From Levilactobacillus zymae DSM 19395 (GTDB lineage: Bacteria > Bacillota > Bacilli > Lactobacillales > Lactobacillaceae), in NCBI RefSeq assembly GCF_001434115.1, contig NZ_AZDW01000003.1, positions 1-51,109 of the forward strand: a stretch of DNA of 51,109 nt, read 5' to 3'. The translations under genes were made by a program, and so were the position numbers. Below are positions 3,987 to 8,386 of the stretch, in pieces (the first letter of the stretch is position 1; every line of letters starts with the position of its first letter). A model generated the notes under the pieces. The model ran no database searches. It was not told the origin of the DNA and worked only from the letters and a program-made list of their open reading frames with translations.

Positions 3987-4457
3987 GTGGAGGGCGTACA
4001 AACTGAATTGATGGCTAAACCAAGGGGTTCAAAAGAGATTAAGCACGACGTTAAGCGGTATTTCCGTCAGGACTTCCAGCGACTAGTGCTGCTGTCCGGT
4101 AAGAAAATATCGGCGCTACGGTCACCACAGTATGATGGGATGCCGAAAGCCCCAGGTGTGAACGGGGACTTTGATAGTGACCTATCCAAGCAAGCCGATC
4201 AGCAGGTTATTGTGGACTGCACGATGGAGGCACTCAATAACATCACCAGCATTAGCTGCGCGATTGTATGGCGCTCACTGGTAATGGATGAACGGGAGGC
4301 AAAGATTCGCCGAATCATTCATTATCAGCACACCCGGTATTCTGAGCGGAAGACGGCGGCCATGATGGAGTTCTACTACGCTTTCCTGGGGCGATTGGCT
4401 AAACGGGGAATTAGCGCACCTGATCTTAACTTTGATGAGTTTCTTGAATGGAACTGA
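3987..4457 (+). CDS. ArpU/RinA-type late transcriptional activator
   Basis: 156-aa phage late-gene regulator. The motif LRSPQYDGMPKAPG followed by a predominantly helical body matches the ArpU family, whose members sit just before the terminase genes of Gram-positive phages and switch on packaging, morphogenesis and lysis genes. The C-terminal part (RYSERKTAAMMEFYYAFLGRLAKRG) has the sigma-70 region 4-like look of the family. GTG start ten bases after AAGGAG; ATG 4011 is an alternative. The three 11-bp iterons immediately downstream are its probable binding sites (inference). Confidence 0.8.
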   Translation: MEGVQTELMAKPRGSKEIKHDVKRYFRQDFQRLVLLSGKKISALRSPQYDGMPKAPGVNGDFDSDLSKQADQQVIVDCTMEALNNITSISCAIVWRSLVMDEREAKIRRIIHYQHTRYSERKTAAMMEFYYAFLGRLAKRGISAPDLNFDEFLEWN

Positions 4458-4461
4458 AAAA

Positions 4462-4515
4462 CGAACTTTTAGCGTACTTTGACCGAACTTTTTAACTGAA
4501 AAATGGGGTTATATT
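4462..4515 (+). promoter_or_regulatory. Candidate late promoter with three 11-bp iterons
   Basis: CGAACTTTT at 4462, CGTACTTTG at 4473 and CGAACTTTT at 4484 recur at exactly 11 bp, one helical turn. Seventeen bases after the third copy is a -10 box TATATT (4510-4515). There is no good -35 box, as expected for an activator-dependent promoter. The repeats lie directly after the activator gene and before the non-coding RNA, tRNAs and terminase operon. Confidence 0.6.
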
Positions 4516-4519
4516 AGTA

Positions 4520-5156
4520 GTGTGCCAAGGATTAAAACACGCCTTTGTTAGTTGGCGACGAGACGAAGACAGGCTTTGCTGGTGGTTCAAGTCCACCTCT
4601 CGTCATTGACCCGGGTAAGTCAGAAACTGCCTAGCATTCAAGCTGGTGTATAAGGGATGGTTAATCCCGCCCACGCTGATGGCTGTTAGTCGCTATGCCG
4701 TCCATCAAGGATACCTGATGGATTACAAATGCCGATTCGGTTGGCTGGTCTGAAAGAAAGGGCTGCGCGTGTCATTGAAGGTAGCAAATCGGCAGAAAAA
4801 TGCACTGTCGGGTCCGCACTCATAACGGTAATAATCGTCCTCAGCATAATGGTGGTTTGGCGACCATCAGAACCAACGGGGGATGCCACTAAGAGTGCTT
4901 CGTAGTTGAACCGGGTAACGCCGGGTATAAGGACTTAGATGGGTACGAGTGGGGATAATCTACGCATACAGAAAATCCAAAATTGGATACAAATATGCCT
5001 ACAATTCCTGAAAGTTGGCGGTCATCGTACCGGCCCGGACCATGTGAGACGTCAACAGCATATCGGGTAGCTCCTGATATGTAGGCGTTGGCGAGTCCGT
5101 AGCATAATATTTCTAGGATTTAAGCGAGCCACGCAAACCAATGCGGAATGCTTCTC
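4520..5156 (+). ncRNA. Large structured phage RNA, GOLLD/ROOL-class candidate
   Basis: About 640 nt with no credible ORF but many perfect hairpins: GGGAT/ATCCC (4654-4668), TCCATCA/TGATGGA (4701-4722), a long-range TGCCGATT/AATCGGCA pair (4730 and 4787), ATCCAA/TTGGAT (4975-4988) and a 9-bp stem CATATCGGG/CCTGATATG (5059-5081). It begins at a late promoter and runs directly into tRNA genes. Giant ornate RNAs of the GOLLD and ROOL families are known from lactobacillus phages in exactly this setting, next to tRNAs, and GOLLD is expressed during lytic growth. The length fits ROOL a little better than GOLLD; I cannot separate them without a covariance search. Confidence 0.7.
4557..4605 (+). other. 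Miniature tRNA-like element inside the ncRNA
   Basis: A 7-bp stem GACGAGA/TCTCGTC encloses a 17-nt spacer and a perfect T-arm, GGTGG-TTCAAGT-CCACC, followed by an unpaired A. This is an acceptor plus T arm without D or anticodon arms, 49 nt in total. It resembles the tRNA-like domain of tmRNA in outline. It may be part of the fold of the large RNA or a tRNA relic. Confidence 0.55.
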
Positions 5157-5157
5157 T

Positions 5158-5230
5158 GGACCTTTAGCTCAGTTGGTAGAGCACCGGACTTTTAATCCGG
5201 GAGTCACTGGTTCGAATCCAGTAAGATCCA
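5158..5230 (+). tRNA. tRNA-Lys(TTT)
   Basis: 73 nt. Acceptor GGACCTT/AAGATCC with one C-A mismatch, D-arm TAGCTCAGTTGGTAGAGC, anticodon loop CTTTTAA (anticodon TTT) on a CCGGA/TCCGG stem, T-arm CTGGTTCGAATCCAG. No CCA is encoded. First of a phage tRNA cluster directly after the large RNA. Confidence 0.93.
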
Positions 5231-5235
5231 TTTAT

Positions 5236-5308
5236 GTGTCTTTAGCTCAGTCGGTAGAGCGTCGGCCTGTTAAGCCGGTTGTCGTTGGTTCGAGCCCAAC
5301 AAGACACG
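5236..5308 (+). tRNA. tRNA-Asn(GTT)
   Basis: 73 nt. Acceptor GTGTCTT/AAGACAC, D-arm TAGCTCAGTCGGTAGAGC, anticodon loop CTGTTAA (GTT), T-arm GTTGGTTCGAGCCCAAC, discriminator G. Canonical throughout; no encoded CCA. Confidence 0.93.
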
Positions 5309-5310
5309 TT

Positions 5311-5333
5311 GACGGGGGATGGTCATCCCCGTC
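5311..5333. repeat. GACGGGG-type palindrome between tRNAs
   Basis: GACGGGG-GATG-GT-CATC-CCCGTC is a near-perfect inverted repeat with a two-base centre. Each arm holds one copy of the heptamer GGGGATG in opposite orientation. It lies right after tRNA-Asn and could act as an RNA-processing hairpin or be a doubled copy of the heptamer signal. Confidence 0.6.
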
Positions 5334-5381
5334 GATACCCCCAATAGAACTTGATGTGGATTGTTAGGAGTAGAGAAACTG

Positions 5382-5429
5382 ACTGGTACTATGGTAGCCG
5401 ATTTGCGGGTTCGAATCCCGCTGCCAGTT
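5382..5429 (+). other. Miniature tRNA-like element
   Basis: Acceptor-like stem ACTGGTA/TGCCAGT, a 16-nt spacer, and a perfect canonical T-arm GCGGG-TTCGAAT-CCCGC, total 48 nt. D and anticodon arms are absent. Size and plan are nearly identical to the element at 4557-4605, which argues against random decay of a single tRNA. It may be a relic, a processing signal or a functional tRNA mimic. Confidence 0.6.
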
Positions 5430-5433
5430 ATAT

Positions 5434-5538
5434 GTGTTGACCGAAGTAACATGTTTTGCCAAGGACAGGGCGCAAGGGGCCATGATAGGATTTCCCGCTG
5501 ACGACCGACACAGCTGGGTTTAACTCCCAGCCAACACA
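5434..5538 (+). other. Atypical tRNA-like element, 105 nt
   Basis: GTGTTGA pairs with CCAACAC (one mismatch) around a 3' T-arm CTGGG-TTTAACT-CCCAG. The loop lacks the usual C56, and the roughly 67 nt between the acceptor strand and the T-arm do not form a normal D or anticodon arm. It may be a degenerate type II tRNA or another tRNA-like structure; it is not a standard tRNA gene. Confidence 0.45.
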
Positions 5539-5552
5539 GAAAACTTGATTGT

Positions 5553-5615
5553 ACGGGCACATCCCCCAAACGAGGAGGTGAAAACACCTCTAAAATTTGT
5601 TTCTAAAGTGCCCGT
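5553..5615 (+). other. Two-tier hairpin before tRNA-Ser
   Basis: An outer 8-bp stem ACGGGCAC/GTGCCCGT (5553-5560 and 5608-5615) encloses an inner perfect hairpin GAGGTG-AAAA-CACCTC (5575-5590). The pairing ends three bases before tRNA-Ser. A processing signal in the tRNA precursor is plausible. Nothing in the stretch encodes a protein. Confidence 0.5.
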
Positions 5616-5618
5616 CTT

Positions 5619-5705
5619 GGAGCGGTAAGCATAATGGTACTGCAGCGGCTTGCTAAGCCGTTACACGGTAATCCCGTGATGCTGGTTCGAATCCAGCTCG
5701 CTCCG
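5619..5705 (+). tRNA. tRNA-Ser(GCT)
   Basis: 87 nt type II tRNA. Acceptor GGAGCGG/TCGCTCC, anticodon loop TTGCTAA (GCT) on GCGGC/GCCGT, a long variable arm (ACACGGTAATCCCGTG) and T-arm GCTGGTTCGAATCCAGC, discriminator G as in tRNA-Ser. Confidence 0.92.
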
Positions 5706-5710
5706 TATTT

Positions 5711-5782
5711 GTCTCACTGGTGTAATGGCCAGCATAGCGGTCTCCAAAACCGCTGATCGAGGTTCGATTCCTTGGTGAGGCG
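5711..5782 (+). tRNA. tRNA-Trp(CCA)
   Basis: 72 nt. Acceptor GTCTCAC/GTGAGGC, anticodon stem GCGGT/ACCGC with loop CTCCAAA (anticodon CCA), T-arm CGAGGTTCGATTCCTTG, discriminator G. Last tRNA of the cluster. Confidence 0.92.
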
Positions 5783-5802
5783 TGTAATGTTTTATTAAAA
5801 GT

Positions 5803-5830
5803 CAGTCTTCTAAGTGAGGACTGCTTTTTT
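5803..5830 (+). terminator. Intrinsic terminator after tRNA cluster
   Basis: CAGTCTTC pairs with GAGGACTG (one G-T) around loop TAAGT, followed by C and six T. It closes the late-promoter / large RNA / tRNA transcription unit. The terminase operon beyond needs read-through or its own promoter; I see no convincing -35/-10 pair at 5831-5918. Confidence 0.8.
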
Positions 5831-5918
5831 CGTGCGTAGACTATGGTAATACGAAAAATCTTGAATCATTAGAATAAATACCGTCTTGAAATGCAGAAAG
5901 CTTTAGTGGGGGATGCCT

Positions 5919-6326: not shown

Positions 6327-7142
6327 ATGGACGTCGATTGGGAGAAAATCAAAAAGGACTATGAAACGTCCACTGCAACGGCTAAAGACTTAGCAGATAA
6401 GTATGGGGTTAAGCCGACAACGCTACGCTCACGGAAGAATCGTGAGAAGTGGCAGCGGTCGGGGGATGCCCCACCAAGTGAAACGAAACAATGTAACGTT
6501 GCAACGCAACACGACGATGACGCGTCACGACGCAACGCCGAAGCAGCTATTGCTAAGTTGAACGCCAGTGGATTGAACGACAAGCAGAAGCTCTTCTGCG
6601 TCTACTACCTGCAGCGTTTCAATGCGACCTGGGCATACCAACAAGCCTATAAGGCCAATTACGCGGTAGCCCACGCAAATAGTAGTCGACTGATGGCAAA
6701 TGCTAACGTGCAAAAATTACTGGGCGACCTGAAGGAACAAGAGCAGGGCGACCTATTTTTGACGTCCGAAGATATTTTGCGTGAATACGCGAAGCAGGCG
6801 TTTTCCAGTCTGGGCGATATCATCAAGTACAACGTGCAAGAAGAGATTGCAACTGATCCAGAAACGGGAACTGTTCTGGACACGAGCGACAATCCTGTGA
6901 AGTTTCACGTTACTGACATCTATCTCAAGCCGTCTGATCAAATCGATTGGTCCGTGGTCAAGAGCATTCACAAAGGCCGAGACGGCCTAGTGGTCGAACT
7001 CTATGACAAGCAAAAGGCTATGCGCGAGCTGATTGATCGATTACCTGCGGCCAAGGTTACCGATTCTGATGAAGATAGCCTGCTGCAGGCCATTATCACC
7101 CGAGCCAAACAGAGTAGCTTACCTAAAGGGGATGATGATTAA
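6327..7142 (+). CDS. terS: Terminase small subunit
   Basis: 271-aa DNA-recognition subunit of the packaging motor. Residues 1-45 form a helix-turn-helix (ATAKDLADKYGVKPTTLRSR), and residues 80-150 form the Terminase_2 core (LNDKQKLFCVYYLQRFNATW, then AYKANYA and SSRLMANANVQK). The C-terminal part is the usual oligomerisation and motor-binding region. The start ATG follows GGTGTGGTGAT; the stop overlaps the ATG of terL (TAATG), so the subunits are translationally coupled. It binds pac or cos DNA and hands it to TerL. Confidence 0.88.
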   Translation: MDVDWEKIKKDYETSTATAKDLADKYGVKPTTLRSRKNREKWQRSGDAPPSETKQCNVATQHDDDASRRNAEAAIAKLNASGLNDKQKLFCVYYLQRFNATWAYQQAYKANYAVAHANSSRLMANANVQKLLGDLKEQEQGDLFLTSEDILREYAKQAFSSLGDIIKYNVQEEIATDPETGTVLDTSDNPVKFHVTDIYLKPSDQIDWSVVKSIHKGRDGLVVELYDKQKAMRELIDRLPAAKVTDSDEDSLLQAIITRAKQSSLPKGDDD

Positions 7143-7585
7143 TGAACGCTGCGCAGTTTGAATTTACGCCATTCTCTGATAAGCAATTTGAAGTGCTGAA
7201 TTGGTGGATGGACCCACGACTTTCAGCGGCCAAGGATACAAGTAAAGTAGTATCAATGCATCCTGAGTGGCTCAATCGTCGAGATAAGGAAGCCCTTATT
7301 TGCGATGGCTCTGTTCGTGCGGGTAAGACTTTAATCATGTCGTTATCGTACGTCCTATGGGGGATGACTAACTACCGTGGTGAGCAGTTCGGTATTGCCG
7401 GTAAAACTATCGGGTCACTACGCCGAAACGTTATACGTCCTCTAATTCGTATGTTGAGAGGACGCCACTATCGAGTTAAAGACCGCCGGGCAGATAACCT
7501 ATTGGAAATTACCTACGGCAGTACAACCAATCTGTTCTACCTCTTCGGGGGCAAAGACGAAGGAAGCCAAGACCTAGTACAGGGT
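7142..7585 (+). CDS. terL: Terminase large subunit, exon 1
   Basis: N-terminal 148 residues of the packaging ATPase. It contains the adenine-binding and Walker A-like segment CDGSVRAGKT. The frame ends in GSQDLVQG, where other TerL proteins continue without a break into ITxAGxFFDEV. Without splicing the frame meets TAA at 7601, six codons into the intron. Splicing between 7585 and 8594 restores a 455-aa protein of normal TerL length. Confidence 0.9.
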
Positions 7586-7693
7586 AAAATGATGCTCCCC
7601 TAATTAGTAATAATTAGGTAAACATTGGGGAAAATCGGTGAAGGCTAAGTTTTAAGATTGAATAGGAAATAACGTTTGCCGGCTTCTATGTAG

Positions 7694-7699
7694 TATAAT
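7694..7699 (+). promoter_or_regulatory. -10 box for the intron ORF
   Basis: TATAAT lies 25 bases before the homing-endonuclease start, with no clear -35 at 17 bp. Intron endonucleases often have their own promoter so that they are expressed independently of late transcription. The AAAGG site before the ATG gives efficient initiation. Confidence 0.4.
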
Positions 7700-7723
7700 T
7701 ATTGTAGAAAGGCGGCGTTTTCC

Positions 7724-8386
7724 ATGAAAGATATTGTTGGTCAGAAATTTGGGTTGCTTACAGTAATTGCATTTGATCATAGAGAAATTCATGTTCGTCC
7801 AAATGGTAAAAAGACTTATCGAATTTATTGGAAATGCAAATGTGAGTGTGGAAGCGTTGTCGTTAGGAGACGTGATGCTCTAAATAACCCTGGGCATGTA
7901 GTAAGCTGTGGATGTTATAGGACTCAGGTAAATAAGACATTTATGGAGCAGCATAACCCTAAAGCTTCTCATGGCTTATCACAAACGCGAATCTACAAAA
8001 TATATTACAAAATGCGGGAGCGTTGTTATGATAAAAATTATCCGCAATTTGATTTATACGGTGGACGTGGAATTCGTATTTGTTCAGAGTGGTTAGATGA
8101 TTTTCGCAATTTCTATGATTGGTCAATCAGCCATGGATATTCTGAAGACAAGAGTATTGATCGTATAGATTTTAATGGAAATTATGAACCGAAAAATTGC
8201 CGATGGGCAGATGTGTATCAGCAAGCCGATAATAAACGCAACAATATCGTCTTAACTCATGACGGAATTACCATGACAATGCCAGAATGGGCAAGAAAAA
8301 TTGGCTTACCGTATTCTACGCTTGCAGATAGGCGAAGAAAGGGTAAGACGGTTGAGGAAATTCTGTATCCGAAAAAACTAAGATAA
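7724..8386 (+). CDS. Intron-encoded HNH-like homing endonuclease
   Basis: 220 aa, the mobility gene of the intron. The N-terminus holds a zinc-binding cluster (WKCKCECGS around residue 36 and SCGCY around 63). The centre has HGLSQTRIYKIYYKMRERC, YGGRGIRICSEW and SIDRIDFNGNYEPKNCRW, the signature of phage homing endonucleases annotated as HNH/AP2 type. The C-terminus (MPEWARKIGLPYSTLADRR) is a helix-turn-helix for target recognition. It is AT-richer than terL, consistent with independent transfer. It would cut intronless terL alleles near the insertion site. Confidence 0.88.
   Translation: MKDIVGQKFGLLTVIAFDHREIHVRPNGKKTYRIYWKCKCECGSVVVRRRDALNNPGHVVSCGCYRTQVNKTFMEQHNPKASHGLSQTRIYKIYYKMRERCYDKNYPQFDLYGGRGIRICSEWLDDFRNFYDWSISHGYSEDKSIDRIDFNGNYEPKNCRWADVYQQADNKRNNIVLTHDGITMTMPEWARKIGLPYSTLADRRRKGKTVEEILYPKKLR

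What the first reader, a model, noticed from the sequence alone, without database searches (positions are those of the whole stretch)
4520..5157. Giant structured RNA candidate of the late region
About 640 bases without coding potential but with many perfect stems, including long-range ones, run from a late promoter straight into a tRNA cluster. This is the setting of GOLLD and ROOL RNAs of lactobacillus phages. The sequence shows stems and position; the family is inferred. It could also be a new class. GGGGATG occurs once inside it (4879-4885).
Basis: partly seen in the sequence, partly recalled or inferred. Interest (0 to 1): 0.8.

Follow-up and report, generated by a model that had tools for sequence, protein, structure and literature searches.

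The report
ROOL RNA beside an anticodon-less tRNA
The stretch is a ROOL RNA, one of the giant phage RNAs known to build hollow cages; here it lies between an odd tRNA-like piece without an anticodon and a normal tRNA, which suggests how such RNAs may be cut out of a longer transcript.

Summary
Window 4618-5152 matches the Rfam ROOL model above its gathering score (106.4 against 99.1 bits); no GOLLD match. Homologues show compensatory base-pair changes (31 of 109 pairs, against 3-7 when partners are slid). It is a new member of a known family of unknown function.

The new part is the setting. ROOL is preceded by a 48-nt tRNA-like element with acceptor and T arms only (4557-4604) and followed, 5 nt after its closing helix P1, by tRNA-Lys. 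A tRNA starts 4-6 nt after P1 in all 19 such loci measured, which hold four P1 sequence types. A related prophage group has a 59-nt tRNA without anticodon arm directly before ROOL. That element, found in 122 loci (51 distinct sequences, 98.5% of stem cells paired), is followed by ROOL in 8 of 121 and otherwise by other sequence.

Most likely tRNA-maturation enzymes cut ROOL free at both brackets. This is inferred, not shown. Against it: some ROOLs lack tRNAs, the window's own element shows no covariation, and energy folding prefers another fold for the 59-nt element.

The parts
3987..4457 (+). gene of a phage transcriptional activator (phrog_248; a gene in similar place in phage Sha1 is annotated RinA), probable late activator of this unit
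   Evidence: E 7.6e-15; no Pfam match at 1e-3; for Sha1
4461..4528 (+). probable late promoter: repeats CGAACTTTT / CGTACTTT / CGAACTTTT, then TATATTAGTAGTGTGCCAA; conserved in L011 and L012, similar by eye in L002 and in the L030 group
   Evidence: no sigma-70 consensus found
4520..4556 (+). leader
4557..4604 (+). TLS1: 48-nt tRNA-like element, acceptor stem 7 bp + T arm 5 bp, 17-nt linker in place of D and anticodon arms; A4605 in discriminator position
   Evidence: scores as tRNA 21.2 bits, below gathering 29; fold z -2.48
4606..5157 (+). ROOL RNA, probable mature extent (552 nt); Rfam match 4618-5152
4633..4639 (+). P1 5' strand AGCATTC, pairs with 5146-5152 GAATGCT
4850..4869 (+). hairpin whose loop TGGC (4858-4861) can pair with GCCA at 4885-4888 (the interaction reported between molecules as bridge B4)
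   Evidence: bridge B4 from PMC12286853
4879..4888 (+). GGGGATGCCA: joining segment that holds GCCA, partner of the loop above
4958..5003 (+). variable linker, corresponding in the model to the linker that is disordered in the cage
   Evidence: PMC12286853
5059..5081 (+). hairpin with loop holding AGCT (5069-5072), taken as the symmetric kissing loop L18
5132..5145 (+). P19 hairpin CGCAAACCAATGCG (name assigned by me)
5146..5152 (+). P1 3' strand
5158..5230 (+). tRNA-Lys (UUU), 5 nt after P1
5236..5308 (+). tRNA-Asn (GUU)
5309..5335 (+). small hairpin (GACGGGG.../...CCCCGTC)
   Evidence: z -2.63
5382..5428 (+). TLS2: 47-nt tRNA-like element, acceptor + T arm, 16-nt linker
   Evidence: pairs kept by one-sided changes in L012; fold z -1.26
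5433..5538 (+). TLS3: 106-nt tRNA-like element, acceptor + T arm with a 73-74-nt insert instead of D and anticodon arms; compensatory changes in L011 and L012
   Evidence: fold z -1.41
5553..5615 (+). long hairpin ACGGGCAC/GTGCCCGT with inner GAGGTG/CACCTC; outer stem covaries in L011
   Evidence: (z -5.80)
5619..5705 (+). tRNA-Ser (GCU)
5711..5782 (+). tRNA-Trp (CCA)
5803..5830 (+). intrinsic-terminator-like hairpin and T run, probable end of the RNA unit
   Evidence: 2 found, 1.7 expected by chance

Best explanation
The stretch encodes a ROOL RNA of a Levilactobacillus prophage. Shown: family identity, conserved fold, and the layout leader, anticodon-less tRNA-like element (TLS1), ROOL, tRNA-Lys, further tRNAs and tRNA-likes, terminator-like hairpin. 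Inferred: the unit is one late transcript switched on by the upstream activator; host tRNA-maturation enzymes cut it like a chain of tRNAs (3' maturation of TLS1 after A4605, RNase P before G5158), releasing a ROOL of about 552 nt whose ends close in P1. Inferred from the family: the released RNA assembles into an eight-copy hollow cage. What the cage does for the phage is unknown; holding cargo during the late phase is the guess I would test first.
For: Rfam ROOL match over the full model. Covariation on an alignment not fitted to the structure. P1 occurs in four sequence types that all pair: AGCATTC/GAATGCT, AAACATT/AATGTTT, AAGTATC/GATACTT, AGTGTC/GACACT. B4-type loop and partner complementary over 4-5 bp in 9 of 10 ROOLs that carry the GAACCA anchor, in four sequence versions (3 of 13 tried lacked the anchor). 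A tRNA starts 4-6 nt after P1 in 19 of 19 loci of these four types, with Lys, Tyr or Leu tRNAs (8, 11; many are near copies). Directly before ROOL stands an anticodon-less tRNA-like in two groups (window group; L030 group, 2 nt from P1) and a tRNA that ARAGORN calls but Rfam does not in two more (L002, LP65). The 59-nt element of the L030 group is conserved as structure: 51 distinct sequences, 98.5% of 816 cells paired, 8 cells with double changes against 1.8 in shuffles. It is present without ROOL in the Sha1 and L. brevis plasmid stretches. Embedded ROOLs have a short contiguous P1 (6-8 bp), L004, L014 and L020 long ones (16-24 bp), but L005 does not follow.
Against: No expression or cleavage data. 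No control was run for the chance of the 4-6 nt spacing. TLS1 itself shows no compensatory change; L011 has two changes in its acceptor, one breaking a pair. In Iacchus (L017) and L039 the tRNA before ROOL is 56 nt away. In Aerococcus phage AVP (L020) no tRNA follows directly; a tRNA-like, read by eye, starts 38 nt after P1. L004, L005 and L014 have ROOL with no tRNA in the ~3.5-kb stretches held, so tRNA cutting is not needed by ROOL in general; L005 also has only 6 contiguous pairs in P1, against my link between P1 length and setting. RNAfold prefers another fold for the 59-nt element by about 5-9 kcal/mol in 3 of 3 sequences tried, although that fold shows no covariation beyond shuffles. 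Energy folding of ROOL alone is not beyond chance. The window score is only 7 bits above the gathering score.
Confidence: 0.7

Rival explanations
1. ROOL is independent of its neighbours: it sits in the tRNA island because such islands gather accessory RNAs, and its ends come from exonuclease trimming down to the stable fold.
For: ROOLs with no tRNA in the stretches held exist (L004, L005, L014); in AVP no tRNA follows directly. ROOL near tRNA islands is already known (PMC12286853, section 6).
Against: The 3' spacing is 4-6 nt in 19 of 19 loci of four P1 types, with three different tRNAs; passive neighbours would be expected to vary more, though no control was run.
Confidence: 0.27
2. TLS1-TLS3 and the 59-nt element are decaying tRNA genes without function.
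For: TLS1 has an unpaired acceptor position in L011. Control phage arrays also gave 3 odd hits of 83. T-stem position 2 is unpaired in 7 of 51 distinct 59-nt elements.
Against: For the 59-nt element, 51 distinct sequences keep 98.5% of pairs and show double changes. TLS3 stems show compensatory changes among three phages. The element is kept with and without ROOL.
Confidence: 0.15
3. The anticodon-less tRNAs have a job of their own, for example decoys for tRNA-binding enzymes or toxins, or a recombination site where accessory RNAs and genes are swapped, and ROOL is only a passenger next to them.
For: ROOL follows the 59-nt element in only 8 of 121 loci; the sequence behind it falls into 26 clusters, several of which look protein-coding by eye.
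Against: It does not explain the tight 3' spacing between ROOL and a normal tRNA.
Confidence: 0.25
4. GOLLD or an entirely new giant RNA class.
For: Low margin over the ROOL gathering score; similar setting.
Against: Full-length ROOL match, ROOL hairpins and covariation; no GOLLD match.
Confidence: 0.02

Closest known systems
ROOL RNA (RF03087), cryo-EM octamer nanocage (Kretsch et al. 2025, PMC12286853)
   Same: full-length model match, overall plan of stems, L18- and B4-type loops, variable linker, phage and tRNA-island setting
   Different: 49% GC (38-39% in L004 and L005), short P1, lowest score among the loci scanned, equal with its near copy L010; tRNA-like element directly upstream; cage untested
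lncRNA of Ligilactobacillus salivarius UCC118 (Cousin et al. 2017, PMC5643018), treated as ROOL in PMC12286853
   Same: same family; 520 nt reported there, 516-607 nt between brackets in the eight loci
   Different: megaplasmid-borne and very abundant there; prophage unit here, expression unknown
GOLLD RNA
   Same: giant phage RNA near tRNAs, cage former (PMC12286853)
   Different: no model match here
tRNA punctuation in mitochondria and minimal acceptor/T-arm RNase P substrates (recalled, not looked up)
   Same: tRNA-shaped marks set the ends of neighbouring RNAs
   Different: here inferred for phage RNAs; no cleavage shown
Non-canonical tRNAs, such as armless mitochondrial tRNAs (titles and abstract beginnings in the listing; passages of PMC7609411)
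   Same: arms missing from a tRNA
   Different: those lack D or T arms; these lack the anticodon arm and cannot decode

Membership tests
ROOL (RF03087) | covariance-model score at or above gathering (99.1 bits) | tested here: met
   106.4 bits, model 1-574
ROOL (RF03087) | conserved secondary structure supported by covariation | tested here: met
   21 of 25 helices have at least 70% of cells paired, four have less
ROOL (RF03087) | L18 symmetric kissing-loop sequence | tested here: met
   GGT[A/C]GCTCC in 6 of 6 aligned sequences; elsewhere it varies, e.g. GGTAGCTCT in L033 and L034
ROOL (RF03087) | B4 quaternary kissing loop (loop and joining segment complementary) | tested here: met
   4 bp in the window; at least 4 bp in 9 of 10 anchored ROOLs; 445 of 5000 shuffled joining segments reach this
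ROOL (RF03087) | no conserved protein-coding frame | tested here: met
ROOL (RF03087) | phage or prophage location, often near tRNAs | tested here: met
   terminase small subunit and portal, tRNAs
ROOL (RF03087) | octameric RNA-only cage | not testable with these tools
   needs cryo-EM or mass photometry
ROOL (RF03087) | folding energy better than shuffled sequence (not a defining feature; listed for balance) | tested here: not met
   z -0.81
GOLLD | match to the Rfam GOLLD model | tested here: not met
tRNA (RF00005), for TLS1 | score at or above gathering (29 bits), cloverleaf with anticodon arm | tested here: not met
   21.2 bits; D and anticodon arms absent
tRNA (RF00005), for the 59-nt element of the L030 group | score at or above gathering (29 bits) | tested here: inconclusive
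   met by the copy in L042 (45.8 bits), no match at gathering for L030, L032, L033, L034, L041; none up to E 0.01 in L043 and L045
tRNA (RF00005), for the 59-nt element of the L030 group | acceptor, D and T arms conserved as pairs | tested here: met
   the D arm was fixed by the search pattern, so only acceptor and T arm are a test
tRNA (RF00005), for the 59-nt element of the L030 group | anticodon arm | tested here: not met
   10-nt linker instead; the search pattern fixed the first 7 linker bases (CACAATGG begins in the D arm's last base), so versions with an anticodon arm were not sought; not called by ARAGORN in 10 of 10 loci tried

The most novel reading that the evidence does not exclude
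Lactobacillus phages carry a late RNA unit in which structured RNAs, ROOL being one, are exchangeable cassettes between fixed tRNA-shaped marks that have lost their anticodon. The marks serve as cutting signals for host tRNA enzymes, so any RNA placed between them is released with clean ends.
Probability: 0.38. Interest if true: 0.8.

Novelty: new variant of a known kind. Interest (0 to 1): 0.55.

Why it matters
How ROOL ends are made and what ROOL is for are open. If tRNA-like marks set the ends, the cutting can be tested at once in vitro, and the marks become a handle for finding other phage RNAs, since the sequence behind the 59-nt element differs widely between prophages. I did not see conserved tRNAs that keep acceptor, D and T arms but have no anticodon arm in what my searches listed (open-licence PubMed Central only; titles, abstract beginnings and passages of one paper seen), which is a limited search.

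Tried and rejected
Blastn of window 4450-5850 against phages and plasmids: in the rows listed (40 of 789 and 20 of 450) the matches lie in the tRNA-Lys/Asn part only; ROOL diverges too fast, so family models and short conserved motifs were used, and one ROOL query did find the L. plantarum phages. Protein-anchored searches with the upstream gene gave only 2 and 1 close loci. L013 matched a TLS3 pattern but shows no tRNA or ROOL and reads as coding by eye; about nine chance matches would be expected by my own rough estimate (no call), so it was dropped. L016 (25-nt match) gave no RNA-family hit and was dropped. L037 and L038 share only a TLS2 pattern and gave no ROOL and no TLS2 in the scan. 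L007 and L040 match a ROOL motif; L040 has no Rfam hit at gathering, L007 was not scanned. L031 and L036 carry ROOL motifs but no Rfam hit: L031 is interrupted, the L036 stretch begins inside ROOL. A loop finder without anchor picked wrong hairpins in several ROOLs and was replaced by an anchored one. The duplex calculation used unreliable anchors for L002 and L006; only inner contiguous helices of the others were used. The Rfam P1 of the window (9 of 16 pairs canonical) was replaced by the 7-bp P1. MAFFT gaps the TLS3 T stem differently from the ungapped stems used. A chemically minded reading of the insert between the 59-nt element and the next element in L043 as a structured RNA is not proven: a 121-nt part folds with z -1.18. 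Tree building, structure prediction and covariance-model building were not used.

Survey caveats: the eight loci with ROOL gave 15 scan hits not called by ARAGORN against 26 called, the eight controls 3 against 80. Window, L011 and L012 are related, L006 gave none, and at least two of the 15 (L019) and one of the 3 (L029) look to me like real tRNAs that ARAGORN missed, so the contrast is smaller than the raw numbers. The scan is loose: 8 chance hits in 2.26 Mb of random sequence.

Full report
What is there. The finding (4520-5157) has three parts: a leader (4520-4556), a 48-nt tRNA-like element (4557-4604, TLS1) and a ROOL RNA (about 4606-5157). The ROOL model of Rfam matches 4618-5152 over its full length with 106.4 bits, gathering score 99.1; with permissive settings nothing competes for that stretch in 4400-5900. 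The window is contig C30 of a genome whose genus-mate G001 carries its ROOL on a contig of 289,615 bases, the length of a Levilactobacillus acidifarinae record found with the upstream gene; hence Levilactobacillus. Terminase small subunit and portal genes follow downstream. A gene matching phage transcriptional activators lies just upstream; a gene in similar place in phage Sha1 is annotated RinA.

Is it more than chance? Energy folding says no (z -0.81). Covariation says yes. With six sequences (window, L011, L012, L002, L017, L019) aligned by MAFFT, without reference to structure, 86.9% of 642 cells pair and 31 of 109 pairs have changes on both sides; sliding partners by 1-3 columns gives 33-46% and 3-7 pairs. 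The structure was taken from the Rfam match plus P1 and P19 set by eye, and pairs not canonical in the window were left out, so the percentage is biased upward; the double changes are less affected. Window, L011 and L012 are close, as are L017 and L019, so there are about three independent sequences. Four of 25 helices have under 70% of cells paired. Coding is excluded by short ORFs and frame-breaking indels.

Parts tied to the known cage. The published structure names an intermolecular kissing loop B4 and a symmetric loop L18 (PMC12286853). The L18 sequence GGT[A/C]GCTCC is present in 6 of 6 aligned sequences, with a variant in L033 and L034. The B4-type loop and joining segment are complementary over at least 4 bp in 9 of 10 ROOLs carrying the GAACCA anchor, in four versions (TGGC/GCCA, TAGT/ACTA, TGAGA/TCTCA, TGAT/ATCA); L006 has 3 bp; L004, L014 and L020 lack the anchor and were not counted; 445 of 5000 shuffled joining segments reach 4 bp. 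Matching these loops to the published B4 and L18 is my reading from the text.

Other ROOLs. Over the gathering score: 3 of 35 genomes of the genus, the window's own included; 4 of 201 of the family with stricter filters, again with the own genome; 2 of 18 relatives of G160, one of them already; L010 and L011; unannotated stretches of phages Iacchus, Bromius, LP65 and Aerococcus phage AVP, 4 of 5 sources; and 7 of 12 further viral loci. Dionysus was matched by BLAST only.

The brackets. I measured the distance between P1 and the neighbouring tRNA or tRNA-like, with P1 strands set by eye. Downstream, in eight loci: 5 (window, L011, tRNA-Lys), 5 (L002, tRNA-Lys), 4 (L030, L042, tRNA-Tyr), 6 (L017, L019, L039, tRNA-Leu). 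Eleven more loci of the same types give 4-6 as well, so 19 of 19; these are four P1 sequence types, and many are near copies. Upstream in the eight: 27, 27, 3, 2, 2, 56, 19, 56 nt. The 3' spacing is tight across three tRNA identities; the 5' spacing is tight in two types only. No chance control was run. Upstream stand TLS1 (window group), a 59-nt tRNA without anticodon arm (L030 group), a tRNA called by ARAGORN but not by Rfam in L002 and LP65, and a normal tRNA-Asn 56 nt away in Iacchus and L039.

ROOLs that do not fit. L004, L005 and L014 have no tRNA in the ~3.5-kb stretches held; L004 and L014 show a promoter-like sequence and a terminator-like hairpin by eye. AVP (L020) has tRNAs upstream but none directly behind ROOL; a tRNA-like read by eye starts 38 nt after its P1. 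In L006 P1 was not resolved; a tRNA-like, by eye, follows the ROOL end. P1 is a duplex of 16-24 contiguous pairs in L004, L014 and L020 against 6-8 in embedded ROOLs, but L005 has only 6, so the link between P1 length and setting is only suggestive.

tRNA-like elements in the window. A strict scan for a 7-bp acceptor joined to a 5-bp T arm with a T-loop motif finds TLS1 (linker 17 nt), TLS2 (5382-5428, linker 16 nt) and 3 of the 4 tRNAs of the cluster, and nothing in 2.04 Mb of first-order random sequence. A looser scan adds TLS3 (5433-5538) and gives 8 chance hits in 2.26 Mb. TLS3 stems, set ungapped by anchors, differ between window, L011 and L012 by compensatory changes: acceptor T-A to C-G at one position; T stem at three positions (G-C to A-T twice, C-G to G-C once, with G-T in L011); all stem pairs are kept or wobble. 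TLS2 keeps its pairs through one-sided changes. TLS1 is nearly invariant; L011 breaks one pair. Direct evidence of selection therefore exists for TLS3, is weak for TLS2 and absent for TLS1. Energy z-scores are -2.48, -1.26 and -1.41.

The 59-nt element. In the L030 group the element before ROOL has acceptor, D and T arms and a 10-nt linker where the anticodon arm should be. A pattern from its D arm and linker, leaving acceptor (but one base) and T arm free, was found in at least 120 viral contig stretches (scan stopped at its limit). With L043 and L045 there are 122 elements, 51 distinct sequences. On these 51, 98.5% of 816 cells pair, 4 pairs and 8 cells have double changes (shuffles 1.4 and 1.8), and slid versions pair at 17-46%. 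On the first 7 sequences alone the signal was weak (41 of 500 shuffles as high). RNAfold prefers another fold by about 5-9 kcal/mol in 3 of 3 sequences; that fold pairs 95.9% but shows no excess over shuffles. Rfam calls the L042 copy a tRNA (45.8 bits) but not those of L030, L032, L033, L034, L041. Of 201 genomes of the family one has the pattern, and the window's own genome has none, so this element marks a particular prophage group and not the window's phage. TLS1 takes the same place in the window, downstream of a similar promoter-like sequence.

What follows the element. Of 121 elements with at least 120 nt behind them, the first 110 nt fall into 26 clusters by shared 9-mers; the largest holds 53, and 8 begin with ROOL; ROOL 3' motifs within 1.6 kb are seen in 6 of 122. 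A Leu-like tRNA element lies within 1.6 kb in 74 of 122. The promoter-like motif is found upstream in 63 of 122 (63 of the 119 with 200 nt held), so about half lack it. In phage Sha1 and an L. brevis plasmid the same promoter-like sequence and element are followed not by ROOL and tRNA-Tyr but by another stretch of about 165 nt, ending at the Leu-like element; part of it is also in LP65 at 93.7% identity, there before a similar Leu-like element by eye. Whether that stretch is a structured RNA is unproven (a 121-nt part folds with z -1.18). Several of the 26 clusters look like protein genes, so the site also takes other inserts.

Reading. The brackets and the exchange of what lies between them are observed. 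That the brackets are cutting marks is inferred from general knowledge that acceptor plus T arm suffices for bacterial RNase P and that CCA-less tRNAs are cut by RNase Z in Gram-positive bacteria (recalled, not looked up). It predicts ROOL ends at about 4606 and 5157. The length between brackets (516-607 nt) fits the 520 nt reported for the L. salivarius RNA (PMC5643018; abstract, outline and one passage seen).

Literature seen. PMC12286853: passages and three sections. PMC5643018: abstract, outline, one passage. PMC9241854: one passage (phage K RNAs compared with GOLLD and ROOL by position and transcription). PMC6669764: passages (tRNA modules of Iacchus and relatives; the words non-coding and noncoding do not occur). 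PMC7609411: passages. Other papers: search listings only. The original ROOL description of 2017 (Weinberg et al.) is recalled and was not read.

Noticed in passing
window 1-51109: GGGGATG occurs 59 times on both strands against 8.1 expected (largest of 100 shuffles 14), 43 on + and 16 on -, the most frequent 7-mer of the contig. A phage-wide motif of unknown role.
   Followed up: partly
window 5553-5615; L011 from 5672: Very stable hairpin (z -5.8) with AGGAGGTGA, like a strong Shine-Dalgarno sequence (recalled), paired to CACCTC; outer stem covaries in L011.
   Followed up: partly
window 4608-4632; L017 4621; L019 5995; L030 minus strand: A short motif GACCC..G.AAGTCA..AAACTGC between TLS1 and ROOL recurs after tRNAs or tRNA-likes in LP65 and the L030 group and in Iacchus, as if ROOL had been joined to the start of another small RNA.
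   Followed up: no
L017 4773-4885, L019 5885-5990, L002 2347-2476, L020 2519-2638, L039 7414-7624, L043 1863-1943: Leu-like tRNA elements (mostly ..TGCTTGTGGCGGAATAGGTAGAC...GGGTGCAAATCCC...) whose anticodon domain is replaced by inserts of very different length, in several Lactobacillus phages and in L020.
   Followed up: partly
L020 4329-4403; L006 2031-2111 of the reverse complement: tRNA-like elements with one long arm in place of D and anticodon arms, then a terminator-like hairpin, behind ROOL in Aerococcus phage AVP and in L006 (read by eye).
   Followed up: no
L031 4158-5917: ROOL appears interrupted by a transposase-like coding stretch (by eye); the Rfam model does not match there.
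   Followed up: no
window 7142-8386: A 153-aa ORF matching the middle of terminase large subunit is followed by an HNH endonuclease ORF, suggesting a terminase gene split by a homing-type insert.
   Followed up: no
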